A DNA stretch of 64,000 nt from Porphyridium purpureum (taxonomy: Eukaryota; Rhodophyta; Bangiophyceae; Porphyridiales; Porphyridiaceae): the NCBI GenBank assembly GCA_008690995.1, contig VRMN01000012.1, positions 248,001 through 312,000 on the forward strand. Reading direction: 5' to 3'. Below, one piece after another: positions 2,989-58,548 of the stretch (positions are counted from its first letter, which is position 1; each line of letters begins with the position of its first letter). The position numbers were made by a program, and so were the translations under genes. The notes beneath the pieces were generated by a model. That model saw only the letters and a program-made list of their open reading frames with translations. It did no database searches and was not told where the DNA came from.

Positions 2989-3113
2989 CTGCAGTTCAAC
3001 TAATCCGCGTCTGCTTGCGCCACCTTTTGAGGTGCTTTGGTTTTCTTCCGATCCGTCCCACAAAATGGTTGGCGACGGATGGTCAGCATCGCTCGCAGTG
3101 AACGTCAAACCCA

Positions 3114-12586: not shown

Positions 12587-15500
12587 TCAAGTCGAGGTCC
12601 ACTCCTTCGCGTTCGGTTCACCCGGCCACATGCCTAGCTCCGGGAAAAGCTGCACGAGCGCCTTCATATTTGCACGCTTGCTAGGCTGCCTCTGGAACCA
12701 CAACCACTCCTCCAAGTTCGACACAGCGTGAGATTCAAAAAGAAATGCACAAGCACGCTCAGCACGCTCCACGTCACCGCCAAGGACGCCCAACATATAC
12801 TCCTCGAAGCCTTCGTATGATTTCCGGCTGGCCACCCAATTTTCAACTTTCATCTTGTCTGGTAACGACAGATGCACAAAGCCTTCGAACTCGCTCATGT
12901 CATGCAATGCCTCTCCATTCACCTTGCGCTCTCTTACATCCATAACCGATGCGGCGTCAACCCGCAAGACCTCCTCCAGTACTCGAGCCAGCTGCTCGCA
13001 CGTCAATTCATCAAGGGGAGTTTCCGCCAGCACACTCTCCAAGTCAGGGTCGGACCCGTCGCTTGATGATAGAATCTCAGCAGCATGATGATCCCCGTCG
13101 CTCTTGGTGTCAGGTGGGGACTGCCTGCTTTGATCCAGCGCCTGGGGCACAGACGTTGCGGCCTCGATCTGGATGTCCGCGATCAACTCCATGTCTCCAC
13201 ATGTCGCCTCGTCCACATCCAGCTTTATTCCTTTCTGCGCCATCGCCACCAGCCGCAACGCAATGTTGAACCGCTCCACATCAAGCCAGGAAAACAACCC
13301 TTCGCTGGTTGCAATCCCCCAGATCTCGTTCAGTACGCGGTTTCGCAGTCCGGATTTGGACAGAAATGCAACTGCGTTCTGCACGTCCACCTCCCCGCTT
13401 CCGCCCGCGTCGGCCAACTTCCAGTACTCGTCATGTCGCGTTGTCTCCAAGGGCGTACGCATGCACTTGGCGAACGGATTAGACCCTGGAATGTCTATCT
13501 TGGCGAGCAGCGAAGGCGAGCCTTGCCGGACACGAGACAGGCTTGCCTCTTCGCCGTTCTGCTCCAGCGCAATGAAGCGCAGCGCAAGCACAAAATCGTC
13601 ATACTGGAGTGTGCGCTTGCAGCGGGCTGTTGCAATCTCATTCCACATCCGATACAGCACCGAGGGGGCCAGCCGTGCCTTTGAAAAGAACGCCAGGGCC
13701 TTCTCAGCGTCCAGCTCTCCGCTCCCATCCGAGTCGGCAACCTCCCAGTAGATCTTGCAGTGCTTTTCTTCGTCGGCCACGGCTGACATGCTTTCTGGGC
13801 CACACTTCAGATCGCTTGTGTCCCACACCTTGATCGTCTGATCACCGCTGCCGGACACGATGAACCTGCCATCGGGCGAGAAGCGCATCGTCAGAATACG
13901 ATCTGAATGCCCTATCATGGTGCGCACACACGACCCGGTGTGGACATTCCATATCTTGATCGTCTTGTCAGCGCTGCCGGACGCGATGAAGCGACCATCC
14001 GGCGAGAAGCGCACCGCCAGTACCGAGTTTGCGTGCCCCATCATGGTGCGTACGGACGCGCCGGTACGTGTGTCCCAAAGCTTGACCGTCTTGTCCACGC
14101 TGCCGGACGCTACGAACTTGCCATCAGGCGACCAGCGCACTGCGAGCACCGAATTTGAGTGCCCCGTCATGGTATGCATGCATGTGCCAGCCAGCGCGTC
14201 CCAAACCTTGACCGTCGTGTCATCGCTACTAGACGCAATGAACCGGCCATCGGGCGAGAAGTGCAGCGCGAGCACAGAATTTGAGTGCCCCGTCATGTTG
14301 CGCAAGGACGCGCGGGCCAGCGCGTCCCACATTTTGACCCTTTTGTCACGTTTGTCCGGCGCGCTGGATCGAACGTCCGGCGACAAGTGCACTTCAGGCT
14401 CCGAGTCCGAGTGCACGCTTTGATCCGAGTCCGAGTGCACTTCAGGCTCCGAGTCCGAGAGCACTTCAGGCTCCGGATCAAAACGCACGGCAGGTGCTGA
14501 AGTGAAGTGCATCGCGGGCGCCGAATTGAAGTGCTCCGCGGGAGCCAAACTTGGATGCTCCGCAGGCGCCAAATTGAAGTTTTCCGCGGGAGCCAAACTT
14601 GGATGCTTTGCGGGCGCCGAATTGAAGTGCTCCGCGGCCGCCAAAGTTGGATGCTCCGCGGCCGCCAAAGTTGGATGCTCCGCGGCCGCCAAAGTTGGAT
14701 GCTCCGCGGCCGCCAAACTTGAGTACCCCGTCATGGTGCGCACGCACGCGCCGGTTTGTGCGTCCCACATCTTGACCGTCTTGTCACCGCTACCAGACGC
14801 TATGAACAGGCCATCTGGTGAGAAACACACCACCAGCACCGACTTTGAGTGCCCAGTCATGGTGCGCACACAAGCGCCGGTGTGTGTGTCCCATAACTTT
14901 GCCGTCGTGTCATCGCTGCCGGACCCAAGAAAATTGCCGTCGGGCGAGAAGTGCACCGTCCACACCCCATATGAGTGTCCCGTCATGGTACACACACATG
15001 CGCTTGTCTGCGCGTCCCACAGCTTGACCGTTGCGTCGTAGCTGCCCGTCGCGATGAGCCAGCCATCAGGCGAGAAGCGAATCGCGCACACCCAATCTGA
15101 GTGCCCCCTCATGGTACGCACGCAAGCGCCGGTGTGTGCGTCCCATAACTTTGCCGTCGTGTCGTCGCTTCCGGACGCAATGAACTTGCCATCGGGCGAG
15201 AAATGCACCGCACGCACCCAATCAGCGTGCCCCGTCATAGTACGGACGCACACACCGGTCTGCGCGTCCCAGACTTTAACCGTTTTATCACAGCTGCCGG
15301 AGACGATGAGCTTGCCATCGGGGGAGTAGTGCACCGCCCGCACCCAGCGTGAGTGTCCCGCCATCGTGCAAACACACACGCCGGTCTGAGCGTCCCACAC
15401 CTTGATCGTGCCGTCATCGCTACCAGACGCGATGAACTTGCCGTCGGGCGAAAAATGCACCGCCCGCACCCAATTTGAGTGCTCCTCCAAGACACGCACG

Positions 15501-15634
15501 CAGCTTCCGGTCTGCGCGTCCCACAGCCTGATCGTTTTGTCATCGCCGCCCGTCGCGATAAAGCGGCCGTCGGGCGAGAAGTGCAAGGCCCTCACCTCTC
15601 CAACGTGCCCCGGCAGAACCGACGCAGCCGCCAT
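12587..15634 (-). CDS. WD40-WD40-EH-EH-SAM-like multidomain protein (paralog 1)
   Basis: 1015 residues from the ATG at 15634. Order of parts: seven WD40 blades (about 5-300), a Pro/Ala/Glu then Ser/Asp-rich linker made of 8-residue repeats (about 305-430), about five more blades (about 435-615), an EH domain (about 620-705) with EF loop DSDGSGELD, an internal NPF at about 719 (IDIPGSNPF), a second EH domain (about 731-810), and a SAM-like helical region (about 865-930; LTCEQLARVLEEVL, VNGEALHDM). The NPF-pocket tryptophans are present (MWNEI about 664, EIWGI about 772). EH1 loop position 12 is Lys, so calcium binding there is doubtful; the EH2 loop is degenerate. EH domains act in endocytosis and actin patches. 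Fusion to two WD40 propellers is not a standard EH architecture that I know. The adjacent genes encode NPF-array proteins. Confidence 0.85.
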   Translation of the reverse strand: MAAASVLPGHVGEVRALHFSPDGRFIATGGDDKTIRLWDAQTGSCVRVLEEHSNWVRAVHFSPDGKFIASGSDDGTIKVWDAQTGVCVCTMAGHSRWVRAVHYSPDGKLIVSGSCDKTVKVWDAQTGVCVRTMTGHADWVRAVHFSPDGKFIASGSDDTTAKLWDAHTGACVRTMRGHSDWVCAIRFSPDGWLIATGSYDATVKLWDAQTSACVCTMTGHSYGVWTVHFSPDGNFLGSGSDDTTAKLWDTHTGACVRTMTGHSKSVLVVCFSPDGLFIASGSGDKTVKMWDAQTGACVRTMTGYSSLAAAEHPTLAAAEHPTLAAAEHPTLAAAEHFNSAPAKHPSLAPAENFNLAPAEHPSLAPAEHFNSAPAMHFTSAPAVRFDPEPEVLSDSEPEVHSDSDQSVHSDSEPEVHLSPDVRSSAPDKRDKRVKMWDALARASLRNMTGHSNSVLALHFSPDGRFIASSSDDTTVKVWDALAGTCMHTMTGHSNSVLAVRWSPDGKFVASGSVDKTVKLWDTRTGASVRTMMGHANSVLAVRFSPDGRFIASGSADKTIKIWNVHTGSCVRTMIGHSDRILTMRFSPDGRFIVSGSGDQTIKVWDTSDLKCGPESMSAVADEEKHCKIYWEVADSDGSGELDAEKALAFFSKARLAPSVLYRMWNEIATARCKRTLQYDDFVLALRFIALEQNGEEASLSRVRQGSPSLLAKIDIPGSNPFAKCMRTPLETTRHDEYWKLADAGGSGEVDVQNAVAFLSKSGLRNRVLNEIWGIATSEGLFSWLDVERFNIALRLVAMAQKGIKLDVDEATCGDMELIADIQIEAATSVPQALDQSRQSPPDTKSDGDHHAAEILSSSDGSDPDLESVLAETPLDELTCEQLARVLEEVLRVDAASVMDVRERKVNGEALHDMSEFEGFVHLSLPDKMKVENWVASRKSYEGFEEYMLGVLGGDVERAERACAFLFESHAVSNLEEWLWFQRQPSKRANMKALVQLFPELGMWPGEPNAKEWTST
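14501..14722. repeat. 24-bp minisatellite coding the inter-propeller linker
   Basis: On the coding (minus) strand about nine 24-bp units encode LAAAEHPT-like octapeptides. The three units at 14642-14713 are virtually identical and the others are degraded (LAPAEHFN, SAPAKHPS). They continue into a Ser/Asp/Glu/Pro acidic stretch (14380-14480). It separates the two WD40 propellers. Confidence 0.8.
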
Positions 15635-16581
15635 CCCACCTCTCCCCTCTTCTTCCTTCAAGCACTGTTTACAACGCACCGTACAAAGCTACCGTCTTGG
15701 CGATTCCAACGACGGACGTGCGCAGCTAACCGCCACCTCTCTGCTCCAGTAACGCGCAAACGCACGCGCGCACCGGTTTTCCTGCGGAATGTCGAAATCG
15801 CTCGTGTTTCACGATTTTCAGCGAAACGAGCTGCAGCGGGCGACGCGAGCGCGCACGAGAAAGTGTGAAGGAAATTGAGTTGGACGGTACCGTCTCACCT
15901 GAATACTACGGTGCGACCAGAAAGGATCCCGGCTACGCAGTTGCGAGAGCGTGGTGGAAGCGTGAAGTGGCATTTGCTCGGAAGATGCGAGCCGACATTG
16001 TGCGCGGAGGCACGCTTACAACGGGACTGGGGCCCAAGCTTAGATGCGTGCCAGAGGCTCGAGTGTTGCAAAGAAATGCTGCAAACCACACCGATTGAAA
16101 CTTTTTTGCCGAGCACAAAGTGCCCGCGCCTTGCAGCATTCTGCAATGATATCAATACCTACACGTTGACAGGGGGAAGTGCCTGATGTTGAAAATGGCT
16201 CGTCGTCCGCGCAATTCGCCACTCGTCCTCCGTGCCTGGCGCACCGCGCAGGCTCTCTGCCTTCGCCGGAGATTCCCTCAAGTAAGCTAATGGAGCACCG
16301 TTTACTTCTATACCTTCAGCCAAAAACCTCTGCCTCTATCTCTCTTGCTTCTCGCGTCTTCCGTGCGCTCCACTCGCCCTTTTATGCTCATCGTCTTCAC
16401 GGGAAACTGTGCAATCCGAAACCGTGCAATCCGAGGCTGTGCAATCCGAAACCGTGCCACCTGAAATTTTGTTCCTTGAGGTGGTGTGGGTAGTCGAATT
16501 CCAACTCAGACGGGACACAACATTTATATGAATTGCAGAGAGTGGAGGACTAAGGATTCTCATTAGGGTCTGTGTTCTCGC
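15635..16581. other. Intergenic upstream of WD40-EH gene 1
   Basis: Promoter-side spacer of the minus-strand WD40-EH gene and 3' side of NPF gene A. No gene recognised. It holds a small 15-bp minisatellite at 16406-16460 (units like GTGCAATCCGAAACC, three to four copies). Confidence 0.45.
16406..16460. repeat. 15-bp minisatellite
   Basis: Three to four imperfect copies of a 15-base unit containing GTGCAATCCGA, within the 3' flank of NPF gene A. Confidence 0.75.
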
Positions 16582-18405
16582 CTAAACCGCCAACGAGGAC
16601 AACTTGGAATCTCGTTTGAACCCGAATGGGTTTCTCAGACGCGAGGAGGTTCGATGCTTCGAAGACCTAGAAGAGCGCGGTGAGGTCGGGAACGGTGCTG
16701 CGTGCTTATTTTGAGGCAAGTTGAAAGGGTTAATGCCGGCGTCGACGCCGTGCCCATTTCCCTTCAACGACTTGGAGCTCGGCGATTGCGGGAACGGTGC
16801 CGCGAGCCCTCTTCCCTGCGCGCCAATCGGTTTGGTGCCGCCGTTGACGCCGTACTCATTTCCCTTCTGTGACTTTGACGAGTGCGGCGACTGCGGGAAC
16901 GGTCCCGCGATCCGGCTATCCTGCGCGCCAAACGGATTGCTGTCGTTCGTGTCGTCGCGCACCTCTTGCTTCAGCGACTTTGACGAGTGCGGCGACTGCG
17001 GGAACGGTCCCGCGATCCGGCTATCCTGCGCGCCAAACGGATTGCTGTCGTTCGTGTCGTCGCGCACCTCTTGCTTCAGCGACTTTGACGAGTGCGGCGA
17101 CTGCGGGAACGGTCCCGCGATCCGGCTATCCTGCGCGCCAAACGGATTGCTGTCGTTCGTGTCGTCGCGCACCTCTTGCTTCAGCGACTTTGACGAGTGC
17201 GGCGACTGCGGGAACGGTCCCGCGATCCGGCTATCCTGCGCGCCAAACGGATTGCTGTCGTTCGTGTCGTCGCGCACCTCTTGCTTCAGCGACTTTGACG
17301 AGTGCGGCGACTGCGGGAACGGTCCCGCGATCCGGCTATCCTGCGCGCCAAACGGATTGCTGTCGTTCGTGTCGTCGCGCACCTCTTGCTTCAGCGACTT
17401 TGACGAGTGCGGCGACTGCGGGAACGGTCCCGCGATCCGGCTATCCTGCGCGCCAAACGGATTGCTGTCGTTTGTGTCCTCACGCACATCTTGTTCCTCC
17501 GACTTTAGCGAGCTCTGCGAGCGCAGGAACGGTGCCGCGAGCCCTCTTCCCTGCACGCCAAACGGATTGGTGTCGTTTGTGTCCTCACGCACATCTTGTT
17601 CCTCCGACTTTAACGAGCTCTGCGAGCGCAGGAACGGTGCCACGTCCTCTTTCATGTTGGGGACAAACGGGTTGGTGCTGTCAATCTCGCTCGGCCCATC
17701 TCCCTTCAGCAACTTTGACGATTGCGGCGAGAGCGAGAACGGTGTGACCATAACGTTCTTCTGCGGGACAAACGGGTTGCTGACCTTCGTGTCGTCATGC
17801 ACATCTCCCTTTACCGACGTTAACGGGTGCGATACGAGCGGGACCGGTGCCATGTCCTCGCTCATCTTCGTGACAAACGGGTTGCTGCCCGTCTCAATTT
17901 CAGAATAACTTGATTGACTAGAATCAGATCGATCGACCGAAGATTCTCTGTCCATTCCGTCTTTCACGTATGTGTCAAGCATCGGCTTCGTCCCGTACGA
18001 GACTGGAGTTCGCTCGTCTTCCCTTCTTTTCATTCCTGGATACGAAACACCATTCTCACGCGGCTGCGGAATGGGTTCGGGAACATGCAGCGGAATCGGC
18101 TCCGAAATCGGCTGCGGAATAGGCTGCGGAATAGGTTGCGGATAGAACGTCTGATTCGTCTCTACCTTTTCCTCTTGTTCTTGCTCTAAGGGTCCCCAAT
18201 AGGAGAAATCAGGTGATGACCTCGAAACTGGCTCATCGCGCACGCCAACCCCTTTTCCGTCGACAGGTTGTGCGACGACGGCGGCATCGTTTTCAACGCT
18301 GCTCGGGATGGGCACGCTCTCGGTCGTTTTCGTCGGCGCTGCGTGGCTGTTGTGGTTAGCTTGAGGTTCTTCTCTAGGAAACAAGCATTCGCAGATATTC
18401 CCCAT
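16582..18405 (-). CDS. NPF-array protein A, possible lipid-anchored EH-domain ligand
   Basis: 607 residues, ATG start, almost entirely low-complexity and probably disordered. The N-terminus MGNICECLF offers Gly2 for myristoylation and Cys5/Cys7 for palmitoylation; Glu at position 6 departs from the strict myristoylation pattern, so the anchor is plausible, not proven. A Pro-Ile-Pro-Gln/Glu repeat follows (about 88-120). From about 170 to the end there are twelve NPF tripeptides, six of them in 35-residue repeats (NPFGAQDSRIAGPFPQSP then SSKSLKQ). The C-terminus is basic (RLRNPFGFKRDSKLSSLAV). NPF is the canonical EH-domain ligand, and WD40-EH genes lie on both sides. Protein B (20504-22450) is a paralog with identical ends. 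The neighbouring context makes a role as EH-recruiting scaffold likely. Confidence 0.75.
   Translation of the reverse strand: MGNICECLFPREEPQANHNSHAAPTKTTESVPIPSSVENDAAVVAQPVDGKGVGVRDEPVSRSSPDFSYWGPLEQEQEEKVETNQTFYPQPIPQPIPQPISEPIPLHVPEPIPQPRENGVSYPGMKRREDERTPVSYGTKPMLDTYVKDGMDRESSVDRSDSSQSSYSEIETGSNPFVTKMSEDMAPVPLVSHPLTSVKGDVHDDTKVSNPFVPQKNVMVTPFSLSPQSSKLLKGDGPSEIDSTNPFVPNMKEDVAPFLRSQSSLKSEEQDVREDTNDTNPFGVQGRGLAAPFLRSQSSLKSEEQDVREDTNDSNPFGAQDSRIAGPFPQSPHSSKSLKQEVRDDTNDSNPFGAQDSRIAGPFPQSPHSSKSLKQEVRDDTNDSNPFGAQDSRIAGPFPQSPHSSKSLKQEVRDDTNDSNPFGAQDSRIAGPFPQSPHSSKSLKQEVRDDTNDSNPFGAQDSRIAGPFPQSPHSSKSLKQEVRDDTNDSNPFGAQDSRIAGPFPQSPHSSKSQKGNEYGVNGGTKPIGAQGRGLAAPFPQSPSSKSLKGNGHGVDAGINPFNLPQNKHAAPFPTSPRSSRSSKHRTSSRLRNPFGFKRDSKLSSLAV
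16871..17500. repeat. 105-bp coding tandem array (six copies)
   Basis: Six head-to-tail copies start at 16871, 16976, 17081, 17186, 17291 and 17396. By eye the first five are identical and the sixth differs only in its last third. Each encodes 35 residues with one NPF. Divergent older units flank the array on both sides. Near-perfect identity implies very recent expansion or gene conversion, so copy number probably varies between strains. Confidence 0.95.
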
Positions 18406-20503
18406 ATTTCCGCGCTCCTAGACAAGCCTCTCACAATCAAAACAAGCTTCCTCGAACGTCCGCCTCGACCTTTCGCGCCACTTGTGCACCAACGCCTTCC
18501 AATCTTTGCTTGCCGGAACCAAACTTGTACAAGTGCGCAGCGCCGTTCACTCCCTTCCTACCTTCGCGCGACATCCTCGCCATGTTTCTTTACCTAAATA
18601 TATTCTGACCCAGTCTCGAAATTCACACAGCAGGCCGACATCGGCGGCAGAAACTGCGGTTTCATAGTAAAACAGGCCTGTTTAGATATAGAAAATGGTC
18701 GAGCGGGCGCATCATTTGTCGCGTGGTGCGGCAAACTGACGGTCGGGTCGAGAAATGGCCGTGGCGTGCGCGTGGCGGTCGTACGCGAAGAGCTCGGCTC
18801 CGTGAACGCAGATGATGCCGGACTTCAATTTACGAGTGCGATGAACCGTTCGGCGAGAGCCGCAGAATGTCGTAAATCCTAAATTCATTTAGAGCTGTTC
18901 ATGTTGCCAATCGATGGTACCGTGTTGAAAAATGGCTCGCCATCCGCGCAATTCGCGACTCGGCCTCCGTGCCCGGTGGAGTGGGTTGTCGAATTCCATC
19001 AAGCGTGCGTGTGCGCATGCAGATTGTGGAAGGTTTTCAACTTCAGCTCGGAAAGCTGACCCTTGCGAGTCAAGAGGAACCATCGCAGTACTGTGTATTG
19101 TGCAGCCGCGCTGCAGTGTGAACCCAACACCATGCATCACTCTACGTGTGGGCTCTATGCAGGAGCCGGAAATGAAGAGTTGCCATCTGCTTCTACACGC
19201 GATCCGAGCCGTTCGTTGGCGGCGTTCCCCACTATGACTGCTCAGGACGGACTTGGCAAGTCGCTTCAACACAGGCGCTCGAACTCGCTTCTCAGCAGGA
19301 GCCCAAGCCTTCTCCCGGCACATCCACGCTCAAGCCTTCGCGGGCGCTCTATGGCCTGGCCACGTATCGCACAGACACCCAGTCGCGGTTTCCGGCGCTC
19401 CGGTGCACGCACTGAACACCGTCACTGAACCTCCGGGGAACTGTACCATATCGTATAATGTACACCCGGCGTGCGAGGGTACAGCGTAAGCACGTCGCTG
19501 CGGCGCGGGCCGGGCGAGGGCGGCAAGCGGTGGTTTGAAGCCGGATGATGCGCGGCGGCACGCGCGTGGACGAATGCGATGGAGCGTGTCATTGCCTTTC
19601 CGACCGGTGATGACGTGCTCATGCCAACGCCGTCTGTTGCACGTCAAATCGTACTCATATCGACCTCTCAGTCTAAGGAGGGGACATGACAAACACAAGC
19701 GCGCCACTTTGAGATCGCGGCCTCGCGGTCCCGCTCGGACCGAGGCGGGCTGAGGCTTGAACAGCGCGTGCATGTGGCGGTTCGCTGCGCGTACCGGTCG
19801 TCGCTTTGGTGCCCCCATTGGCGACGAGCCCTCGGGTCATCGCGAGCTTAAGTATGGCGCCCCCACGGGTCGTCGTCGCGCTCATCGCGAGGATTTGGAA
19901 TTTCTCGTCACATATAGTCCTACACAGATGACGACCACGAGTGCAGCTCCAGGCGAACTGCAGCAGCATGTCGATCGCATGGCCTTCCAGGCTACCAGCA
20001 TCCGCTGTGCTGTCGTCAGCGGCCCCTTCGTGCTCGAGCTCAGGACAGCCGCGAATGAGTGAGCGATCATGACGTCCAGTACGCGAATCCTGAACGACTC
20101 GACATGGCACAACGGCAATGCCGGGCCCCGCTTGGGCTACTGGAAGCTGGACTACGCGACGCGGGCCGTACATGCCCCAGCGCACGCCGCGGGCACGGCT
20201 ACGGCACGTTGTCGAGCATGCCACTCCTCCCACAATGGCTGAGGCTTCCAGCACGCAGATAACGGTCCGCGGCTGAGTACCACAGCTCCAGCGCCAACTG
20301 TCTTTATGAGCGCGACTGGCGTCTACGCATGCGTAAGGTACAACACAGCAAGACCGCAGCAGAGACAACACTTTTACATGTACTACAAAGAGCAACGTAC
20401 AAAGGAGTCTGGGTTTGGGTCTGTGTTCTCGCCAGAAGTAGCTGCGTGCATCTGAGAAGCTGCGGGGACATTTATGCATCCAAAGCTCGTCCTGGCACCT
20501 CGC
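18406..20503. other. Spacer between NPF genes A and B
   Basis: The first 450-900 bases are the duplicated upstream region of gene A. The part from about 19480 to 20420 has no counterpart near gene B and contains only an unconvincing 268-codon antisense frame (19673-20479, Arg/Ala/Cys-rich, no domain). A 70-base segment just before gene B's stop (about 20438-20508) is absent at the matching place after gene A, where flanking bases join directly. Confidence 0.45.
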
Positions 20504-23280
20504 TTAAACCGCCAACGAGGACAACTTGGAATCTCGTTTGAACCCGAGTGGGTTTCTCAGACGCGAGGAGGTTCGATGCTTCGACGACCTTGAAGAGCGC
20601 GGCGAGTCCGGGAACAGTGCTGCGTGCTTATTTTGAGGCAACTTGAACGGGTTGCTGCCGGCGTCGACGCCGTGCCCATTTCCCTTCTGCGACTTTGACG
20701 AGTGCGGCGAGTCCGGGAACGGTGCTGCGTGCTTATTTTGAGGCAACTTGAACGGGTTGCTGCCGGCTTCGACGCCATACCCATTCCCCTTCAGCAACTT
20801 TGAGCTCGGCGATCGCGGGAACGGTGCCGCGAGCCCACTCACCTTTGCGCCAAACGGGTTACTGTCGCTGCTGTCGGCGTCGACGCCATACCCACCTCCC
20901 GTCTGCGACTTTGACGAGCTCGGTGATCGCGGGAACGGTGCCGCGAGCCCACTCACCTTTGCGCCAAACGGGTTATTGTCGCTGCTGTCGGCGTCGACGC
21001 CCAGGCCATACTCTTTCAGCAACTTTGAGCTCGGCGATTGCGGGAACGGTGCTGCGAGCCCACTCGCCTTTGCGCCAAACGGGTTGTCACCGTTGCTGCG
21101 GACGTCGACGCCCAGGCCATACTCTTTCAGCAACTTTGAGCTCGGCGATTGCGGGAACGGTGCTGCGAGCCCACTCGCCTTTGCGCCAAACGGGTTGTTG
21201 CCGTTGCTGCCGGCACTTATGCCAAGCCCATCTCCCTTCAGCGACTTTGACGAGTGCGATGATTGCGGAAACGGTGCTGCGAGCCCACTCCCATTCAAAC
21301 TGAACGGGTTACTGCCGACGTCGACGCCAAGACCATATTCTTTCAGCAACTTTGAGCTCGGCGATTGCGGGAACGGTGCCACGAGCCCACTCGCCTTTGC
21401 GCCAAACGGGTTGTTGCCGTTGCTGCCGGCACTTATGCCAAGCCCATCTCCCTTCAGCGACTTTGACGAGTGCGATGATTGCGGAAACGGTGCTGCGAGC
21501 CCACTCCCATTCAAACTGAACGGGTTACTGCCGACGTCGACGCCAAGACCATATTCTTTTAGCAACTTTGAGCTCGGCGATTGCGGGAACGGTGCTGCGA
21601 GCCCACTCCCATTCAAAGCGAACGGGTTGCTGCCGACGTCGACGCCAAGACCATATTCTTTCAGCAACTTTGAGCTCGGGGGTTGCGGGAACGGTACCAC
21701 GAGCCCACTCCCATTCAAATCAAACGGGTTGTTGCCGTTGCTGTCGGCACTTATGCCAAGCCCATCTCCCTTCAGCGACTTTGACGGGTGCGACGATTGC
21801 GGAAACGGTGCCGCGAGCCCTCTTCCCTGCGCGCCAAACGGATTGCTGCCGGGAATGCTATCTTTACGCACATCTTGTTCCTCCGACTGTGGCGGCTTCG
21901 GCATGTCCGCCATTGGTGCCACGGGCTTGCTGACCTCCGGGACAAAAACATTGGTTCCGGTCCCAACTTCAGAATGACTTGTTTGACCAGAAACAGATCG
22001 ACCGCCCGAAGATTCTTTCTCCGCTCTGTTTTCCTCGTCGTTGCGGACATGTGGTTCAATGATTACCAAGACCGGAATTCGCTTTTGAGGTTTGGCTTTT
22101 TGCTTTCCTGAATACGGATCATCCACTTCCTTCGGCGGAATCGGCTCCGAAATCGGCTGCGGAATAGGCTGCGGAATAGGTTGCGGATAGAACGTCTGAT
22201 TCGTCTCTACCTTTTCCTCTTGTTCTTGCTCTAAGGGTCCCCAATAGGAGAAATCAGGTGATGACCTCGAAACTGGCTCATCGCGCACGCCAACCCCTTT
22301 TCCGTCGACAGGTTGTGCGACGACGGCGGCATCGTTTTCAACGCTGCTCGGGATGGGCACGCTCTCGGTCGTTTTCGTCGGCGCTGCGTGGCTGTTGTGG
22401 TTAGCTTGAGGTTCTTCTCTAGGAAACAAGCATTCGCAGATATTCCCCATATTTCCGCGCTCCTAGACAAGCCTCTCACAATCAAAACAAGCTTCCTCGA
22501 ACGTCCGCCTCGACCTTTCGCGCCACTTGTGCACCAACGCCTTCCAATCTTTGCTTGCCGGAACCAAACTTGTACAAGTGCGCAGCGCCGTTCACTCCCT
22601 TCCTACCTTCGCGCGACATCCTCGCCATGTTTCTTTACCTAAATAGATTCCGACCCAGTCTCGAAATTCACACGGCAGGCCAACATCGGCGCCAGAAACT
22701 GCGGTTTCATAGTAAAACAGGCCTGTTTAGATATAGAAAATGGTCGAGCGGGCGCATCATTTGTTGCGGTGCGCGGCAGACTGACGGTCGGGTCGAGAAG
22801 TGGCCGTGGCGTGCGCGTGGCGGTCGTACGCGAAGAGCTCGGCTTCGCGAACGCGGAGCATGCCGGACTTCAATTTACGAGTGCGATGAACCGTTCGGCT
22901 GGAGCCGAGGAATGTCACAGATCCGAAACCCGTTCGCAGCTGTTTAGGCGGCGAGGTGACTTTGCCTGTGCGCAGGCGGATCAGGGAAGGTTTGCAACTT
23001 TAACTCGCGAATGTGAACTTTGCGAGTCGAAGGGACCATCGTGGTAGTGTATAGTCAACCCGTGTTTCGGTGTGCATCCGACACCAAGCGTCGGTTCACG
23101 TGTGTGCTGTATGTAAGAGGTGGTGAAGAGATCCCAGCTCCTTCCGCACGCCATGCACGGCGCTCGTTGGCGGCTTTCGCTATCGGGCCCTTAAGGACAG
23201 ACAGGCCAAACCGCGTCGGTACGCGCGCACGAAGTCCGTTCTCAGCACACGCACAATCCTTCTCTAGGCACATACGTGAG
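20500..23280. repeat. Tandem segmental duplication, copy 2
   Basis: Partner of 16570-19300, carrying NPF gene B and its upstream flank. The proximal promoter (22451-22645) is nearly identical to 18406-18600, then similarity falls in steps. Simple interpretation: an older duplication whose 5' ends were recently homogenised. Confidence 0.85.
20504..22450 (-). CDS. NPF-array protein B, paralog of protein A
   Basis: 648 residues. The first 105 residues (MGNICECLF to ISEPIP) and the C-terminal tail (SSKHRTSSRLRNP, GFKRDSKLSSLAV) match protein A; the middle has evolved separately. It has twelve NPF tripeptides in 33-41-residue units of a different flavour (NPFGAKASGLAAPFPQSP, SSKLLKEYGLGVDVGS). 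Units alternate and are less uniform than in A. The final unit reads NPL instead of NPF. Between the shared head and the array lies a unique charged stretch (about 106-175, Lys/Arg/Glu-rich). The candidate N-terminal acylation is as in A. Same inferred role: multivalent ligand for the EH domains encoded nearby. No folded domain is visible. Confidence 0.75.
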   Translation of the reverse strand: MGNICECLFPREEPQANHNSHAAPTKTTESVPIPSSVENDAAVVAQPVDGKGVGVRDEPVSRSSPDFSYWGPLEQEQEEKVETNQTFYPQPIPQPIPQPISEPIPPKEVDDPYSGKQKAKPQKRIPVLVIIEPHVRNDEENRAEKESSGGRSVSGQTSHSEVGTGTNVFVPEVSKPVAPMADMPKPPQSEEQDVRKDSIPGSNPFGAQGRGLAAPFPQSSHPSKSLKGDGLGISADSNGNNPFDLNGSGLVVPFPQPPSSKLLKEYGLGVDVGSNPFALNGSGLAAPFPQSPSSKLLKEYGLGVDVGSNPFSLNGSGLAAPFPQSSHSSKSLKGDGLGISAGSNGNNPFGAKASGLVAPFPQSPSSKLLKEYGLGVDVGSNPFSLNGSGLAAPFPQSSHSSKSLKGDGLGISAGSNGNNPFGAKASGLAAPFPQSPSSKLLKEYGLGVDVRSNGDNPFGAKASGLAAPFPQSPSSKLLKEYGLGVDADSSDNNPFGAKVSGLAAPFPRSPSSSKSQTGGGYGVDADSSDSNPFGAKVSGLAAPFPRSPSSKLLKGNGYGVEAGSNPFKLPQNKHAAPFPDSPHSSKSQKGNGHGVDAGSNPFKLPQNKHAALFPDSPRSSRSSKHRTSSRLRNPLGFKRDSKLSSLAV

Positions 23281-24437
23281 ATCTTTCTGTCTCTCTACTT
23301 TCTCTAATTTACAGCACAGCCACAAAAACCGTGGGAACTTTCGACTTGGTCCTCATCATTCTATCGCGTCGTCATGACCTAGCGACTCGCATAGTATCCA
23401 AGAACGACCTTCTCCCTTGGTACCCATCTGATCACAAACTCGACCGCACGAACCCATGATCAATCGAACAGACCTGTTGCGCGCTAAAGGTAGTTTTCAT
23501 AAGATCGCGAAAACCTTGGCAAACCAACGCCCGCCGGTCTCCGTATCCGATACGATATTACAATTATTATTATTTGTCAATCCTCGTCCTGTGCAGACCC
23601 TTTTCTCGTGACCACGTCAGTTTCCCCCTCCAAAAAGCCATGATATGATTTATTTTTCCACGGCATCCCAAGAAACAGAGCAAGAAAGACACCTTTGGAC
23701 GTTCCACTCAACGTGCGACTCCATCATGAGCGCATACCGCCGTGTCCATTTACAACTCACGCAAGACCTCCCTCATTCCCCCCGTTTCCCCCCTCCCCCA
23801 CACACACACACGCTTCTGAAATTTTGCAGTGTCGGTTTCCGTAGCAAAACCACACGAATTTATGGGAGTTAGAAAGGCGAGCACCAAAATTGAATTCATC
23901 TAGCAAACGATGACTTTTTAGTAGGAAACAGTGAGCACAGCAATTCATATGCGTAGGTGCATTCTTTTGATACCGACGGCTGACAAGATGACACAAGGGT
24001 TAGTTGGTGTGCAACGTTTATATTATGGTCTAGTGTGACACGACGGGCATATGCTGTATACGGCGACTGCCTCGATTGGGAAGAAGTCTTGCAACACGAA
24101 CCGGCCTGTTTCAGTAGATCGTTCGACAATCTCACCGTGCGTACTCAAGCCTTCCCGTAGGAAAGAGACGGTGGGAAAGAAGGAAGGTGACAAGGAAAGA
24201 AAGCTGGGAACGATAGCCAAGGGGAATAAGTGTTGTTGTACCGTGGCAAGCCGTGAAAGTTGTACAAGGTGTCGTGTTGCTCGGCTGCACGGAAAAGAGC
24301 GGCAAACAGACTTGCACGACTGCCGACGAGTCGAACTTTTTCGTGTTCGCATTGCGGCACCTAGACGTAGTGCTGGCATCTTCACGCGCGGACGCCGATT
24401 GTTACAAACGGGGAGCACGCACGAAGGACAGGACAAC
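22451..24437. other. Intergenic between divergent NPF gene B and coiled-coil gene
   Basis: The first 800 bases are duplicated upstream sequence of gene B. From 23300 on it is AT-richer, with a short (AC)n near 23800-23812, and no gene is recognised. An open frame runs in phase from 24051 into the coiled-coil gene, but its Lys/Arg/Cys-rich 129 codons look like untranslated leader. Confidence 0.45.
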
Positions 24438-26324
24438 ATGGCGTCTGTGAGTGAAGGTACCACAGCGCCTGGCGAAGCCGGCGCAGCCAGCGGTCCTTCG
24501 CGCCTATCGCAGGAGCGCGCCGCGTCAATTAAAGTCATGCAGAGGCAGATGGAGAGCATTGATGCTTCTGTGCAGAACATTGGCAACGAAATTCAAGCCG
24601 CGGACGCCGCGTTGAAGGCAATGACGGAAGATATCAGCGCCAGAACAGAGAGAATCAAGCGGCTTATCGAACGTGGCAAGAGCACGGAATTGACTCTAAA
24701 CCAGGAACGAAAACTGCTTCAAGAAGCCGAACAAAAGCTCCATGAGACGAAGCAGCTGATTCGGAGACTGGACATGCAACACAAAGCTATACATTTGGAG
24801 ATCACCAAGAAACGTGCAAAACTCGCGGCGCTTGATGACCCGCGCGTCGACGGTGCAAAGCTGGAACATCTGCGCAACGAACTGCGTGAGACAGAATCTA
24901 AAGTGCAGCGGACGCAAGAGGAGCGCGCAGCGATCTATCGAGAGCAATCGAGGATTGAGCTCGAGAAGCAAAGGGTCCAGAGCGATGCCAATAACAGGAA
25001 GTTGGAGACGGAGAGAACGCAGCAGCGGATTCGGGAGGCCCAGAAACAGCAGCTGGCTGTAAAGCAGCGAATGCTGGATCTCAAGCGGGCCATGGAGGCC
25101 AAAAACCAGGAAATTGCGCTCGAAAATCAGAAGCGAGAGGCGGCACAGCAGTTCGGCAAAGGCGCGGTTACCGCGGGGACAATCGGTGCCCTCGTTCTTC
25201 CTGGCCTTGGTTGGCTATTTGCAGCCGGTGCTGCCGCCGCTGCCGTCGGAAGCCTGGCACAGGTATGCTATCACATGGGACGCGCGAAAAGCCTGAGATC
25301 CCAACTGGAGCGAATGCGGGCTGATATGGTGGACTTGGAATCATTGATGATGAACATCGGGGTTCACATGCAGCAGTTAAGCGAGGAGTTGCAGATGAAC
25401 AAAGCGTCAGAACAAGCCTCGGTTTCGGAAATGCACAAGGTAACCGGAGAGGAGCGCGAAGCGCGTCGTCGATTTGAGGTTAAAACGCACCAGCTGGAGG
25501 GTCTTGTTGAGAGGCAGGGTAAACTTGAGGGGCTCACAGTGACCGAACAGGAGAAGATTGAGAGAATGAAGGCGGATCTGCACCAACAGTTGGGTGAGCA
25601 CGTTGCCTCGATTTCCGAGGTTGAGAGCATGCTGATGGTCCAAAATGAGGCGTTGGCCGATGGTGTCGAGCTGACAAAGCAGAAACAGGCTCAGCTTACG
25701 AATTTGACCGTGGCACTGGAAGAGGTTAAAGGTGAGCTGATTGTCGAAAATCAGGAACTGACTTACGCGAAAAAGAATCGGGACGCAAAGTGTACAGAAA
25801 TGACGTCTCTGAAGCGTGCTGAAAACGAACTCAAGAAGGATCAGAAGGAACTGAAAAAGACGGTCGCAGAAACGATACAATCGCTACGAAATGAGGAGCT
25901 TGCAAGAAAAAAGCAGGAGGAACTTGCCAAGTTGTTGGAGCAGAAGAAGCAGGAGCAGCAGGAAAAAGAAAAGGAGGAACGCTTAGCACATGAGCACCAT
26001 TTGAAAGAGAAGGAAGAGATCAGAGCGCGCTTGGCACTTCAGCAACAGCAGAAGAAAGAGAAGGATTACACGACCGTTCAAAATACCGGAAAGGCGACCA
26101 ATGTCACGGGAGTAACGACCACTCGCTATACGTCGGTGCAAGGGTCACACGGGCAAATGTCCGGAGAGGCGCCGCAGTCAAAGAGACAATCCGCATTAAA
26201 TCTGGAAAAGACAAAAAGTACTTTGCAAGCGCTGGACGAGGCAGCGACACTTCCCGCAGGTGCAGAAGTGCCGGAGAAGCAGAAGTCGAAGAAGATGAGC
26301 TCGGTGATGCAGTTGGCTGCTTAG
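24438..26324 (+). CDS. Long coiled-coil protein with a central hydrophobic Gly/Ala segment
   Basis: 628 residues from the ATG at 24438 (MASVSEG); an in-phase ATG at 24051 would add 129 atypical residues and is disfavoured. Heptad-rich Glu/Lys/Gln sequence fills about 30-235 and 285-545. Between them a strongly hydrophobic stretch (about 240-275: GAVTAGTIGALVLPGLGWLFAAGAAAAA) could form a membrane hairpin or glycine-zipper helix pair. The C-terminus is Thr/Ser/Lys-rich. This plan resembles membrane-inserting tether or scaffold proteins, but no family is recognised. It lies between an NPF-array gene and WD40-EH gene 2 and could belong to the same module, by position only. It contains no NPF itself. 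Confidence 0.65.
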   Translation: MASVSEGTTAPGEAGAASGPSRLSQERAASIKVMQRQMESIDASVQNIGNEIQAADAALKAMTEDISARTERIKRLIERGKSTELTLNQERKLLQEAEQKLHETKQLIRRLDMQHKAIHLEITKKRAKLAALDDPRVDGAKLEHLRNELRETESKVQRTQEERAAIYREQSRIELEKQRVQSDANNRKLETERTQQRIREAQKQQLAVKQRMLDLKRAMEAKNQEIALENQKREAAQQFGKGAVTAGTIGALVLPGLGWLFAAGAAAAAVGSLAQVCYHMGRAKSLRSQLERMRADMVDLESLMMNIGVHMQQLSEELQMNKASEQASVSEMHKVTGEEREARRRFEVKTHQLEGLVERQGKLEGLTVTEQEKIERMKADLHQQLGEHVASISEVESMLMVQNEALADGVELTKQKQAQLTNLTVALEEVKGELIVENQELTYAKKNRDAKCTEMTSLKRAENELKKDQKELKKTVAETIQSLRNEELARKKQEELAKLLEQKKQEQQEKEKEERLAHEHHLKEKEEIRARLALQQQQKKEKDYTTVQNTGKATNVTGVTTTRYTSVQGSHGQMSGEAPQSKRQSALNLEKTKSTLQALDEAATLPAGAEVPEKQKSKKMSSVMQLAA

Positions 26325-27370
26325 TGTCAATTTGGCTTTTGTTCATTCGGTTGTACATTGCAGTCTATCATGTCAATTGTGTGGGGTGCAAATTGCGAGA
26401 CGCTTACGTGCCTTCGGGGCCAAGAGAGGCGCGCTGCGTTTAGATCAACGGAGAGGTTTCTCGAACACGAAATGTTGGTTCGATTGGGGTCCGCCATGCA
26501 GCTTGGGGTGCAGTAATGTTGCTTATTGAGCAGAGGGCGCGGCCGTCGGGCGTGGAAAAGGCTTTGTTTGATGCAGGCCAGCATCCTTGTGCCACGATAG
26601 GGATAAAGAGATAGATCCGTTCGTTTGGCTTCCAGACTGTAAATTGCGTCTACTGTTCGTGGCGCTGCATTTGGCCGCACATGCGGACTACGACAACCAA
26701 AGACGAACGGGCCGGCGGTGGTGCTGTACCATGTGCGATCTCTTGAGCTCTGTTCAACATTAAAGTCCGTGCATATATTGAAGCCATACGTGTCGACAAT
26801 GGTAAGCCGGCCGCGGTCTGCGTGTGACGGAGCGTTTGTTTAGAGTCGTCGCACGGCTAGATACCTTGAATGATGATTCTTAGAAGGCATGCGCATCACG
26901 TGACGGCGTCCTACCTCCGCACTGCGCGAACATCCAAGACGGGTTTCCATTCCTCCGTACCACCACCATGATCCCTATGTGCCTGCGTGAGTCTCCTTTA
27001 TCACGCCGTGTCCATCCTATTCTGCAATTGTAATTCACTCTTTACACGCTGAGCAGCTATCTAACGTGCTTCCTGCTGATCTGCGCCTCATATGTACGTC
27101 TGTCCACGCGTGCACGCGACTCAGAATCAGCCATCGCTCCCATGTGCCCGCATGTAGCCGAGTCGAGCGCACCACAAGGCACAAAGTCGCGCAGCAGCCG
27201 CGTTGTGTGTTTATTTTTTGCTTCGCGCGCTGCGCAATGCTGCGCTGAAAAATCGTGAAAAGCTCGCGTGTTCGCGATTCCGGAGGAAAAGCGGTGTGTG
27301 CACGGGCAGGTGAGAGGGAGAGAAGGTAGCGTTGTGGACGGTCGATGTGAAGGAGGGACCAAGAGGTGCA
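26325..27370. other. Intergenic upstream of WD40-EH gene 2
   Basis: About 1 kb with no recognisable gene. It serves as 3' flank of the coiled-coil gene and 5' flank of the WD40-EH paralog. Small antisense frames here lack any family signal. Confidence 0.4.
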
Positions 27371-29518
27371 ATGGCGGCTGTGCTAAATCTGACGGGGCAC
27401 TCAGACCATGTGAACGCGCTTGACTTCTCGCCCGATGGCAGGTTCATCGCGTCCGGCAGCTCGGACAAGACGATCAAGGTCTGGGACGCACACACCGGCG
27501 CGTGCGTGCGCACTTTGACGGAGCACTTTGATGAGGTGGGGGCGGTGCGCTTCTCGCCCGATGGCAAGCTCATCGCATCCGGCAGCAGTGACACTGCGGT
27601 CAAGCTGTGGGACGCACACGCTGGCGCGTGCGTGCGCACCATGAAGGGGCACTCAGGTTTGGTTTGGGCGGTGGACTTTTCGCCCGATGGGCGGTTCATT
27701 GCATCCGGCAGCAGTGACACTGCTGTCAAGGTATGGGACACACGCACCGGCATGTGCGTGCGCACCATGACAGGGCACTTGAGTTCAGTTTTGGCGTTGG
27801 ACTTTTCATCGGATGGCCGGTACATCGCCTCTGGCAGCAATGACAAGACGGTCAAGCTGTGGGACGCATACACCGGTGCGTGTGTGCGCACCATGATAGG
27901 GCACGCAGATTTGGTGTGGGTGGTGCAGCTTTCGCCCGATGGCCAATTCATTGTGTCCGGCAGCGCCGACAAGACGGTCAAGCTCTGGGACGCACACACC
28001 GGTGCGTGCGTGCGAACCATCGCGGGGCACTCAAATTCGGTATGTGCGGCGCACTTTTCGCCCGATGGCCGGTTCATTGCGTCCGGCAGCGCGGACAAGA
28101 CGATCAAGTTGTGGGACGCAGACACCGGCACGTGCGTGCGCACTATCACAGGGCGCTCAGATTGGTTACTCATGCGTGTTATGCGGTATTTAGCTGGGGC
28201 GAACGAGGGGCATTCAGGTGAGGTGCAGGCTGTGCGCTTCTCGCCCGATGGCCGGTTCATCGCGTCCGGCAGCGCGGACAAGACGACCAAGGTGTGGGAC
28301 ACAAGCGACCTACATTGCGGCCGTAGAAACACGTCGAGTGCGCCCGAGGAGGACCAGTATTGCAAGGGCTATTGGGAGATTGCCGACTCGGATGGGAGCG
28401 GAGAGTTGGACGCTCAGGAGGCGCTGGCGTTCTTCTCAAAGGCGCGGCTGTCGACTTCGGTGCTACATCGGATGTGGGATGAGATTGCAGTAGCCCGCGG
28501 CAAGCAAGCGCTAAACTATGACGACTTTGTGCTCGCGCTTCGCTTCATTGCGCTGGAGCAGAACGGCGAGGAGGGCAGCCTGGCGCGTGCGCAACAAGGT
28601 CCGCTCTCGCTGTGTGCCAAGATAGACATACCAGGGTCGAACCCGTTTGCCCTTGGCGCGCGCACGCTGTCGGAGACAGCGCAGCACGAGGTATACTGGA
28701 AGCTGGCCCAGGCGGACGGAAGCGGTGAGGTGGACGTGCAGGGAGCGGTTGCGTTTTTGTCCAAATCTGGACTGCGGAACCGCGTGCTGAATGAGATCTG
28801 GGGCCTTGCGACTAGCCAAGGGGTCTTTTCGACGCTCGACATGGAGCGGTTCAAGACTGTGTTACGGCTGGTGGCGATGGCCCAGAAGGGAATGAAGCTG
28901 GACTTGGACGAGGCGGCAGGTGGCGACATGGAACTGATCGCGGACATCAAGGTAGAGGTCACAACAACTTTGCCAGAGCCAACGAGTTCTTTTGCGCGGC
29001 CTTCGCGTCCCGCGACAAGCGTTGTGGACTATCATGCCGCTGAGATTCAATCGCCAGGCAACGGGTGGGACACCGACTTGGAGAGTATGCTTGAGGAAAC
29101 TCCCCTGGACGATCTGACTTGTGAGCAGCTGGCTCGAGTTCTGGAAGAGGTCTTGCAAGTTGACAGCGCATCAGTGAGGAATGTGAGGGAGCACAAGGTG
29201 AACGGTGTGTCTCTGCACGATATGAGGAGGTTTCAAGAGATTGCAAATCTGTCATTCCCGGACAAGAGGAAAGTCGTAAAGTGGGTCGCGGAACGGAAAT
29301 CGGACGAAGGTTTCAAGGAGTACCTGGCGGGTGTCTTTGGCGGTGACTGGGAGCGTGCTGAGCATGCTTACGCATTGTTGGAGAAATACGCAATTTCGAA
29401 TCGAGAAGAGTATCTGTTGTTCCGCTCACAACCAAGCCAGCGAGCAGCTGTGAGGGCGATTGTCCGGCGCTTTCCAGAACTTGGCACGTGGCCGAGAGGA
29501 CCGGTCGCACGGAAGTAG
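27371..29518 (+). CDS. WD40-EH-EH-SAM-like protein (paralog 2)
   Basis: 715 residues from the ATG at 27371. Seven WD40 blades (about 5-315) with repeated FSPDGRFIASGS and KLWDA phrases; the last is preceded by a non-blade insert (LLMRVMRYLAGANE, about 265). EH1 (about 325-410) has a complete EF loop, DSDGSGELDAQE, with Glu at position 12, unlike paralog 1. An internal NPF sits at about 424 (IDIPGSNPFALG), then EH2 (about 435-520) and a SAM-like region (about 570-635). The pocket Trp residues are at about 369 (MWDEI) and 477 (EIWGL). Compared with paralog 1 it lacks the linker repeats and the second propeller; the rest aligns end to end. The inverted orientation relative to paralog 1 brackets the NPF genes. 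Likely a cytosolic adaptor binding NPF proteins. Confidence 0.85.
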   Translation: MAAVLNLTGHSDHVNALDFSPDGRFIASGSSDKTIKVWDAHTGACVRTLTEHFDEVGAVRFSPDGKLIASGSSDTAVKLWDAHAGACVRTMKGHSGLVWAVDFSPDGRFIASGSSDTAVKVWDTRTGMCVRTMTGHLSSVLALDFSSDGRYIASGSNDKTVKLWDAYTGACVRTMIGHADLVWVVQLSPDGQFIVSGSADKTVKLWDAHTGACVRTIAGHSNSVCAAHFSPDGRFIASGSADKTIKLWDADTGTCVRTITGRSDWLLMRVMRYLAGANEGHSGEVQAVRFSPDGRFIASGSADKTTKVWDTSDLHCGRRNTSSAPEEDQYCKGYWEIADSDGSGELDAQEALAFFSKARLSTSVLHRMWDEIAVARGKQALNYDDFVLALRFIALEQNGEEGSLARAQQGPLSLCAKIDIPGSNPFALGARTLSETAQHEVYWKLAQADGSGEVDVQGAVAFLSKSGLRNRVLNEIWGLATSQGVFSTLDMERFKTVLRLVAMAQKGMKLDLDEAAGGDMELIADIKVEVTTTLPEPTSSFARPSRPATSVVDYHAAEIQSPGNGWDTDLESMLEETPLDDLTCEQLARVLEEVLQVDSASVRNVREHKVNGVSLHDMRRFQEIANLSFPDKRKVVKWVAERKSDEGFKEYLAGVFGGDWERAEHAYALLEKYAISNREEYLLFRSQPSQRAAVRAIVRRFPELGTWPRGPVARK

Positions 29519-34300: not shown

Positions 34301-34537
34301 TACATGAAGGAGGAAGACGGCGTGCAGGACACGGGTCCGGATGGGAAGAAGAAGGAACCTGAGGTTTTGAAGCGCTTTGCTGCACAAAGCTTTGACGAGC
34401 GCAAGCTTATTATCGAAAGAGTTGAAAGCGGCGGGATCAACTGGAAGCAGCTCAGATGGAACTGCTGCGAGCAAGGCCTGTTTTCTGGAAACGGCGGCGA
34501 GCTCCTGGGTCCGCATGAGTTCATGCGCGACGACTGA
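31349..34537 (+). CDS. Large AAA ATPase with CHORD-like Cys/His C-terminus
   Basis: 1062 residues, ATG start. A helical, partly disordered N-terminal third (1-320) precedes one AAA module: Walker A GPPGTGKT at 345-352, Walker B VVVDE with Asp408-Glu409, sensor-1 region FFAATNHPEMM and an Arg pair (LRRMK) at the expected arginine-finger site. A long helical region follows (about 550-940). The last 110 residues hold CYNC (about 957-960), CGRH (about 974-977), a WNCC pair (about 1039-1040) and GPHEF, arranged like the CHORD zinc module (C-x2-C...C-x2-H...WxCC...G-x-H), though incomplete. AAA proteins remodel complexes or unfold substrates. Substrate and location are unknown; no targeting signal is seen. 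I know of no standard AAA family with this tail. Confidence 0.75.
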   Translation: MVSEDIDCYSVCQEHAEVAAAFAEARLKHGLGAEDAERILIGRLEEMQELSEVPYVKFLASKSTAQLKDEVVSLMELMGTLEQAQKGAERYELGRFLGLSKGQSMVSSSNANGNLGSGPDAPAAPASSVGTASAQFQAFPDSPRDEYDSLEAPSLHLAFSQQTHHDFVLANFFQGSVDAFKEALAGSARYQAQQGASKLFADIEIDEEPSQGGTKLIPEPFSCRVLPPTVAVIKEAKAAFVQASHVHVAVGGAEQPKLEKTVVAERKVEEELRAFARYLIYTAQPTPDPFKNNCDLSLRSQDVLGAVAEVGNVLMGIEDVQRQMRIGFRLFESTKSLPRGVMFYGPPGTGKTSLIVKLCALLDIHLVAPMLAAGDFAKPLVGQAEEMINQLALRAAAVPWRLCCVVVDEIESLVTSRGKGGGDSSKLSVLLSRIGGVSDVPNLMFFAATNHPEMMDSAFLRRMKIKIFVGPPSSEGRASFVRRLGSDIFETKGHVCNDQGEDKGGSCDHAGCALERATIKMTVNFAASQIVGALTRVRSVLADYKAEDIAVNDAFDLIHAAVAQFTEEENILISSVYNQVNIMAPFVRPKGRTLEHLVRDSKRLQYLLSENGRRKANCSGRIVIDLTAPRDHIQVQLKPQKMDLGQQRFIVEPAEVDPKEFPDSMLIGGGQSFADALGDESMPCLELLPLVGPLRQYFRDSPVWVEGQTFVSAILQYKECVGLAPKKRSSKTVQAFLEQTKALWHAPTPSPASGAARSAGAIPKLVLEQYYNGDSKPYRSLLEQIEKRVRSRAQALSFALKEQYPKEVLEERYECFSFVRDARDLSVEDLLAVYLHLGVACNTTRLLYICREFFHSNKIVAEGEMELFWHEQIKSLKNEYKSGMVIIDYDSLANPVKDKLGEDRFDLVQLMASIAATFRASSDHLWFLAVSGNKAIISRIIENSKWRPAIDTDPPLRCYNCGKWARQSINKKTSCGRHTGDLVLYMKEEDGVQDTGPDGKKKEPEVLKRFAAQSFDERKLIIERVESGGINWKQLRWNCCEQGLFSGNGGELLGPHEFMRDD

Positions 34538-58210: not shown

Positions 58211-58548
58211 CACGACCTATCCCACTGCGCTCCAAAGACTTTCTCTCTGTCTCTCTTTGTTGTTCTCCCTCTCCAACTCTGCGACGAACAGACCGAAAAA
58301 GCTCCCGAGTCATGAACATAGTAAAACGAGTGCATTTACATAGACAATTCAACCCTCCGTAATAACCCGTCGAATTCCCATAAAGCCGCAGAACGCGAGG
58401 GAGCAACGAGCGGAGAGCACGGTGTATGTGACATGACAACTTGGATTGAATGCGATGTATCTGCCTCTCTCTCTTTCTCTCTCTCACTGTGTGTGTGTGT
58501 GTGTCTTGCCGACGTATGTCACTAGGTTTGTGATAAGCAGAAGCGGGA
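58211..58548. other. Spacer between two tandem WD40 genes
   Basis: 338 bases holding a (CT)n/(GT)n microsatellite at 58462-58504. It is the promoter region of the 56804-58210 gene. Confidence 0.5.

What the first reader, a model, noticed from the sequence alone, without database searches (positions are those of the whole stretch)
12587..29518. EH-domain/NPF-array gene cluster: a candidate new scaffold or trafficking module
Seen: two WD40-EH-EH-SAM-like paralogs in inverted orientation bracket two tandem genes whose products each carry twelve NPF motifs. Known: EH domains bind NPF through a pocket with a conserved Trp, present in all four EH domains here. Inference: receptor and multivalent ligand are encoded side by side and act together. 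The NPF proteins may be lipid-anchored and may recruit the WD40-EH proteins into clusters or coats at a membrane. I know of no described system with this architecture; in other eukaryotes EH domains sit in Eps15, intersectin, Pan1 and EHD proteins.
Basis: partly seen in the sequence, partly recalled or inferred. Interest (0 to 1): 0.88.

Follow-up and report, generated by a model that had tools for sequence, protein, structure and literature searches.

The report
WD40-EH receptors beside NPF-repeat proteins
In a single-celled red alga, genes for proteins that combine a variable recognition wheel with peptide-grabbing EH domains sit next to genes for proteins built from the peptide such domains usually grab, which suggests a home-grown, possibly defence-like, assembly system.

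Summary
The window is from the red alga Porphyridium purpureum. Among 21 distinct array units NPF is the most constrained element; a second motif, PF, at fixed spacing (NPF-x9-PF), is nearly as constrained. A structure model supports EH and SAM folds. All 16 EH-bearing ORFs keep the pocket Trp in both EH domains; 12 of 16 have their own NPF between the EHs. EH-NPF partnership is likely, not shown. Linkage is not independently replicated: the only other NPF relative found is a frame-broken copy in a segmental duplicate. A relic array on C1 shows excess replacement change (pN 0.37, pS 0.07) at the four WD40 codons selected in fungal HET-D/E receptors; intact genes show no clear excess, and ordinary WD40 blades vary at nearly the same positions. 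I read it as a recognition-plus-clustering scaffold (0.4); an endocytic scaffold is the main rival (0.3).

The parts
12587..15634 (-). WD40-EH-EH-SAM gene A (1015 aa; two WD40 arrays split by a low-complexity insert)
13472..13480 (-). NPF motif of gene A in the linker before EH2 (residues 719-721)
16582..18405 (-). NPF-array gene 1 (607 aa, 12 NPF, units mostly of 35 residues)
20504..22450 (-). NPF-array gene 2 (648 aa, 12 NPF; first 100 codons identical in DNA to gene 1)
24438..26324 (+). Coiled-coil gene with central hydrophobic Gly/Ala-rich segment (residues ~249-270 of 628); divergent from NPF gene 2
27371..29518 (+). WD40-EH-EH-SAM gene B (715 aa)
28340..28597 (+). EH1 of gene B (model residues 16-101)
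28640..28648 (+). NPF motif of gene B in the linker before EH2 (residues 424-426)
28658..28927 (+). [not shown]
29075..29302 (+). [not shown]

Best explanation
The locus encodes a two-component, self-assembling recognition scaffold. The WD40 propeller of the WD40-EH proteins binds a varying partner; its tandem EH domains bind NPF (and probably the following PF) motifs of the NPF-array proteins, each of which offers about a dozen sites; the SAM domain and the protein's own linker NPF add further self-association. The arrays, whose N-termini carry a conserved Cys pair, gather many WD40-EH molecules into a cluster, probably at a membrane, and the coiled-coil protein may be the membrane-inserting partner. 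Shown: domain content, motif constraint, family diversity, decay of copies. Inferred: EH-NPF binding between these proteins, membrane site, clustering, recognition role, and any part for the coiled-coil protein.
For: NPF positions in 21 distinct array units: pN 0.04/0.10/0.04 with many silent changes at the N and F codons (pS 1.2 and 1.1); P and F at offsets 13-14 pN 0.05/0.11; most other positions 0.2-0.6. NPF-x9-PF spacing is constant while unit length varies 33-38, and is the same in the three readable units of the C45 copy. Pocket Trp in 32 of 32 EH domains. EH-SAM half constrained (w 0.31 and 0.40 in two comparisons). EH2 and SAM folds. Unstable family: 16 ORFs, four places with internal stops, near-allelic clusters with 5 v 4 genes. 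In 2 of 6 gene pairs compared, WD40 pS is 0.32-0.43 but C-terminal pS only 0.08. C1 relic array: 19 blades, 15 distinct, codons 7/9/25/27 pN 0.37 v pS 0.067, elsewhere 0.017 v 0.018, bootstrap over blades 0 of 500 at or below zero; the same codons as in HET-D/E (PMC1805685 passages; PMC2873952 passages). Double-NPF and other F-motif binding by EH domains is known (PMC8144573 and PMC12370899, passages).
Against: No binding, localisation or expression data. In intact genes there is no clear replacement excess: w at positions 6/7/9/25/27 is 0.56-0.98 in blade comparisons, pN exceeds pS within 4 of 12 genes, and in 4 of 6 gene pairs pN is at or below pS there with WD40 and C-terminus similarly diverged or nearly so. 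The C3 WD40 array (20 blades, no EH found) has no excess (0.48 v 0.51). 18 blades of five other WD40 genes are most variable at 27, 25, 12, 7, 9, so the ranking alone proves nothing. Blade identity in 14 ORFs is 57-73%, below the 85% used for fungal receptors. Intact NPF genes flank 2 of 16 WD40-EH ORFs. The linker NPF lies in a low-confidence stretch of the model, and 4 of 16 ORFs have lost it.
Confidence: 0.4

Rival explanations
1. A lineage-specific endocytic or trafficking scaffold: WD40-EH proteins are adaptors that read cargo or coat proteins through the propeller and are recruited by membrane-tethered NPF arrays, with no recognition or defence role.
For: EH-NPF pairs are best known from endocytosis (recalled; abstracts); closest EH structures are AtEH1/Pan1 of the plant TPLATE complex; NPF constraint; no clear replacement excess in intact WD40 blades.
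Against: Copy-number change between near-allelic clusters (5 v 4 genes), four broken copies and the C1 array would be unusual for coat adaptors.
Confidence: 0.3
2. Coincidental linkage: the NPF-array proteins serve the alga's ordinary EH proteins (AtEH1/Pan1-like on C11, EHD on C24), and the neighbouring WD40-EH genes are unrelated in function.
For: Intact NPF genes occur at one locus, with 14 of 16 WD40-EH ORFs elsewhere; two other EH proteins exist.
Against: By simple arithmetic (no call) about nine WD40-EH loci of 15 kb each cover 0.6% of the genome, so unplanned adjacency is unlikely though not excluded.
Confidence: 0.15
3. WD40-EH proteins assemble by themselves (EH binding the linker NPF of a neighbour, plus SAM), and the NPF-array genes are fast-evolving, dispensable tandem-repeat genes.
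For: Linker NPF in 12 of 16; the C45 NPF copy is broken and its first 66 codons changed without constraint (w 2.0); gene 1 has five identical 35-residue units and a sixth alike for 27 residues, so the array grew recently.
Against: NPF and PF positions stay constrained across diverged array units.
Confidence: 0.1

Closest known systems
AtEH1/Pan1 EH domains (plant TPLATE complex) and Eps15/intersectin EH domains
   Different: WD40 propeller in front, SAM-fold domain behind, NPF inside the linker; no other shared domain found
EHD proteins
   Same: The alga's own EHD-like protein on C24 has NPF in the linker before its EH domain, as 12 of 16 WD40-EH ORFs do; linker PF motifs in other EHDs are recalled
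   Different: No dynamin-like ATPase; two EHs, WD40 and SAM instead
Fungal HNWD/HET-D/HET-E NLR receptors
   Same: 42-residue WD40 blades with variation at codons 7, 9, 25, 27; unstable paralogous family with broken copies; public records name three paralogues 'HET-E-1' (probably automatic naming)
   Different: No NACHT and no HET domain; EH-EH-SAM is C-terminal to the propeller; intact blades less uniform (57-73%) and without clear replacement excess
Eps15-Dab2 multivalent network
   Same: EH domains plus F-motifs in disordered chains giving dynamic clusters (PMC12370899, passages)
   Different: Here the motif array is a separate, regular gene pair with 24 NPF and a second PF motif at fixed distance
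Shank/Polyhomeotic SAM domains
   Different: Sequence identity 10-13%; polymerisation untested

Membership tests
EH domain (PF12763) | Profile score over curated cut-off | tested here: met
   52.1 and 50.5 bits against 22, two stretches each
EH domain (PF12763) | Pocket Trp for NPF | tested here: met
   32 of 32 EH domains in 16 ORFs, two of which are identical
EH domain (PF12763) | NPF binding | not testable with these tools
   needs ITC/NMR
NPF ligand protein | NPF motif conserved beyond its surroundings | tested here: met
   pN 0.04/0.10/0.04 at N/P/F in 21 distinct units
SAM domain | Five-helix SAM fold | tested here: met
   [not shown]
Fungal NLR (HNWD, HET-D/E) | Central NACHT/NB-ARC domain | tested here: not met
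   In the two window genes WD40 starts within the first 5 residues and runs into EH1, leaving no room; one search showed the best 25 of 56-58 families only
Fungal NLR (HNWD, HET-D/E) | Excess replacement change at WD40 codons 7, 9, 25, 27 | tested here: inconclusive
   Clear in the C1 relic array; not in the C3 array nor clearly in intact genes; ordinary blades also vary there
Fungal NLR (HNWD, HET-D/E) | Internal repeat identity over 85% | tested here: not met
   57-73% in the 14 of 16 ORFs with enough blades; 89% in the C1 relic
N-myristoylated protein | Small residue (S/T/A/G/C/N) at position 6 after Met-Gly (recalled pattern) | tested here: not met
   E6 in both window genes, V6 in the C45 copy, by inspection
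Alpha-helical pore formers (YaxA/AhlB/SmhB type) | Helical-hairpin body with hydrophobic tip | tested here: inconclusive
   [not shown]

The most novel reading that the evidence does not exclude
A red-algal non-self or damage recognition module that works like fungal sensor-executioner pairs but without NACHT: hypervariable WD40 sensors signal through EH domains to NPF-array scaffolds (in place of amyloid or death-fold signalling), with the adjacent coiled-coil, hydrophobic-tipped protein as the membrane-acting output.
Probability: 0.17. Interest if true: 0.92.

Novelty: new variant of a known kind. Interest (0 to 1): 0.62.

Why it matters
EH-NPF binding is best known from endocytosis. A lineage that fused EH domains to varied WD40 wheels and SAM domains, and put the cognate motif into a dedicated gene pair with 24 sites next door, would be a new use of that interface and a testable entry to recognition systems in red algae. 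It also offers a ready ligand for a question in the EH field: whether EH domains read a two-part motif (NPF plus a second PF at fixed distance).

Tried and rejected
NPF arrays as chance or low-complexity artefact: rejected. Other NPF arrays near the other WD40-EH copies: none in 258.5 kb; the surroundings of the four broken copies (C1, C11, C17, C45:778k) were not scanned for NPF, only covered by the homology search. NPFGA pattern genome-wide: 24 hits, 12 of them in the two genes, the others far apart. Homologues outside P. purpureum: none returned, but one search gave 4 proteins although the genome has 16 such ORFs, and one search did not return even its own query, so absence elsewhere is weakly supported. 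Top-variable WD40 positions as proof of HET-E-like selection: rejected after the control (18 of 33 aligned pieces kept, from five loci chosen as more distant WD40 hits; 'ordinary' is my label). Docking of the linker NPF into an EH pocket: no support, as residues 113-122 of the model have pLDDT under 50. Phage families: none for the coiled-coil and 35.7-kb genes, ATPase-type families only for the AAA gene. Papers: listings and abstract starts (84 found none); passages only of PMC1805685, PMC8144573, PMC12370899, PMC4986451, PMC6811547, PMC13282721 and PMC2873952. No paper on WD40-EH fusions or NPF arrays in red algae stood in the listings (6 of 6; 15 of 109; 10 of 63).

Full report
WHERE IT IS. 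The window is C20:248001-312000 of a 22.16-Mb, 46-contig genome. Public names of paralogues give Porphyridium purpureum; size and largest contig agree with the 2019 long-read assembly of strain CCMP1328 (22.1 Mb, largest contig 5.7 Mb; that paper gives 52 contigs; PMC6811547, passages).

THE ARRAYS. Both NPF proteins have 12 NPF motifs in units of 33-38 residues. Their first 100 codons are identical in DNA, so they have been copied or converted recently. I compared 25 units (the 24 NPF minus the last, partial one of gene 1, plus one KPI and one NVF unit), 21 of them distinct: N, P and F of NPF have pN 0.04, 0.10 and 0.04, with many silent changes at the N and F codons (pS 1.2 and 1.1; at P only 0.18); P and F at offsets 13-14 have pN 0.05 and 0.11; most other positions lie between 0.2 and 0.6. 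Where both motifs are present the distance is always NPF-x9-PF, although unit length changes. The second motif is lost in some units (for example PV, PM, LF), and gene 2 has NPL near its end. EH domains can need two NPFs (PMC8144573, passages) or take other F motifs (PMC12370899, passages), so I infer a two-part ligand. Each protein is 76-77% disorder-promoting residues and has only two Cys, at positions 5 and 7.

THE FAMILY. A genome search gives 16 ORFs with the EH-EH-SAM part (one pair 100% identical, on C20 and C33; one without propeller, on C45) and four places with internal stops (C45:778k, C17:165k, C11:1592k, C1:2366k). Both EHs keep Trp in 16 of 16; the linker NPF is present in 12 of 16, replaced by NRF in 2 and NPL in 2. 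C22:110-153k and C31:53-10k are collinear in inverse at about 94-99.5%, yet carry five and four WD40-EH genes, with different inserts: haplotypes or a recent duplicate. I compared six gene pairs: in two the C-terminus is close (pS 0.08) while the WD40 part is far apart (pS 0.32 and 0.43); the other four show no such contrast or a small one.

WD40 BLADES. In 87 blades picked by a text pattern, the four most variable positions are 9, 7, 25 and 27, closely followed by 6 and 2, with 8 and 26 nearly fixed. Codons 7, 9, 25 and 27 are those under positive selection in Podospora HET-D/E, where 8 and 26 are constrained (PMC1805685, passages; PMC2873952, passages). The rank is not specific: 18 blades from five other WD40 genes of this genome peak at 27, 25, 12, 7 and 9, and 19 blades of EH-less cousins peak at 7, 12, 9 and 27. 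In intact genes w at 6/7/9/25/27 is 0.56-0.98 against 0.26-0.37 elsewhere; within genes pN exceeds pS at 7/9/25/27 in 4 of 12. So constraint is relaxed there; positive selection is not shown. The C3 array (20 blades) has pN 0.48 v pS 0.51. The one clear case is the C1 relic: 19 blades kept of 21 (two irregular ones dropped), 15 distinct, pN 0.37 v pS 0.067 at 7/9/25/27 and 0.017 v 0.018 elsewhere, position 6 apart (pN 0.39, pS 1.08). With all 21 blades the values are 0.361/0.063 and, with position 6 in the rest, 0.050/0.048. That gene's EH part is broken, so the pattern may record the past.

THE DUPLICATE. Window 16.6-34.9k aligns in order to C45:271.6-300.5k, pieces of 65-85% identity, with extra ORFs between, some of which recur elsewhere (transposons by inference). 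The NPF copy starts MGNVCVCF, then changes frame and has stops; three units are readable (NPS, NPF, NPF; PF in all three). Its first 66 codons show w 2.0 against gene 1. The coiled-coil copy is open and constrained (w 0.38); the WD40-EH copy has lost its propeller but its C-terminus shows w 0.40. So the neighbourhood was probably duplicated once as a block; it is not independent evidence that the genes need each other, and in that copy NPF decayed while the coiled-coil gene stayed open.

MECHANISM AND VERDICT. Likely: array units are bound by EH1/EH2; SAM and linker NPF add self-association; the result is a cluster. Less sure: the propeller is the recognition part and is, or was, under pressure to diversify. 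Open: membrane site, trigger, output. I give 0.4 to the recognition-scaffold reading, 0.3 to an endocytic scaffold, 0.15 to coincidence and 0.1 to WD40-EH self-assembly alone. Absence of homologues elsewhere is weakly tested.

Noticed in passing
L040 (C1:2366001-2370200), 1146-4043 -: Broken WD40-EH gene whose open WD40 part holds 19 regular, near-identical blades that differ mostly at positions 6, 7, 9, 25 and 27; 12 combinations at the four key positions.
   Followed up: yes
C22:110-153k and C31:10-53k (L017-L027): Collinear inverted WD40-EH clusters, about 94-99.5% identical, with 5 v 4 genes and different inserted ORFs; one C31 gene region matches two C22 gene regions, as unequal crossing-over would give.
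   Followed up: partly
window 31349-34537 +: AAA ATPase gene next to the cluster, partly present in the C45 duplicate at 85% DNA identity, the closest piece of that block.
   Followed up: no
window 56807-60480 -: Two WD40 genes without recognisable EH part, cousins of the family, with different C-terminal tails.
   Followed up: partly
L001 (C24 EHD-like gene): The alga's EHD-like protein has NPF in the linker before its EH domain, where most WD40-EH proteins have theirs.
   Followed up: no
EF-hand loops of EH1 and EH2 in the WD40-EH family: The first EF-loop of both EH domains looks calcium-competent in many ORFs (DSDGSGELDAQE, DADGSGEVDVHE), but EH2's loop is degenerate in both window genes.
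   Followed up: no
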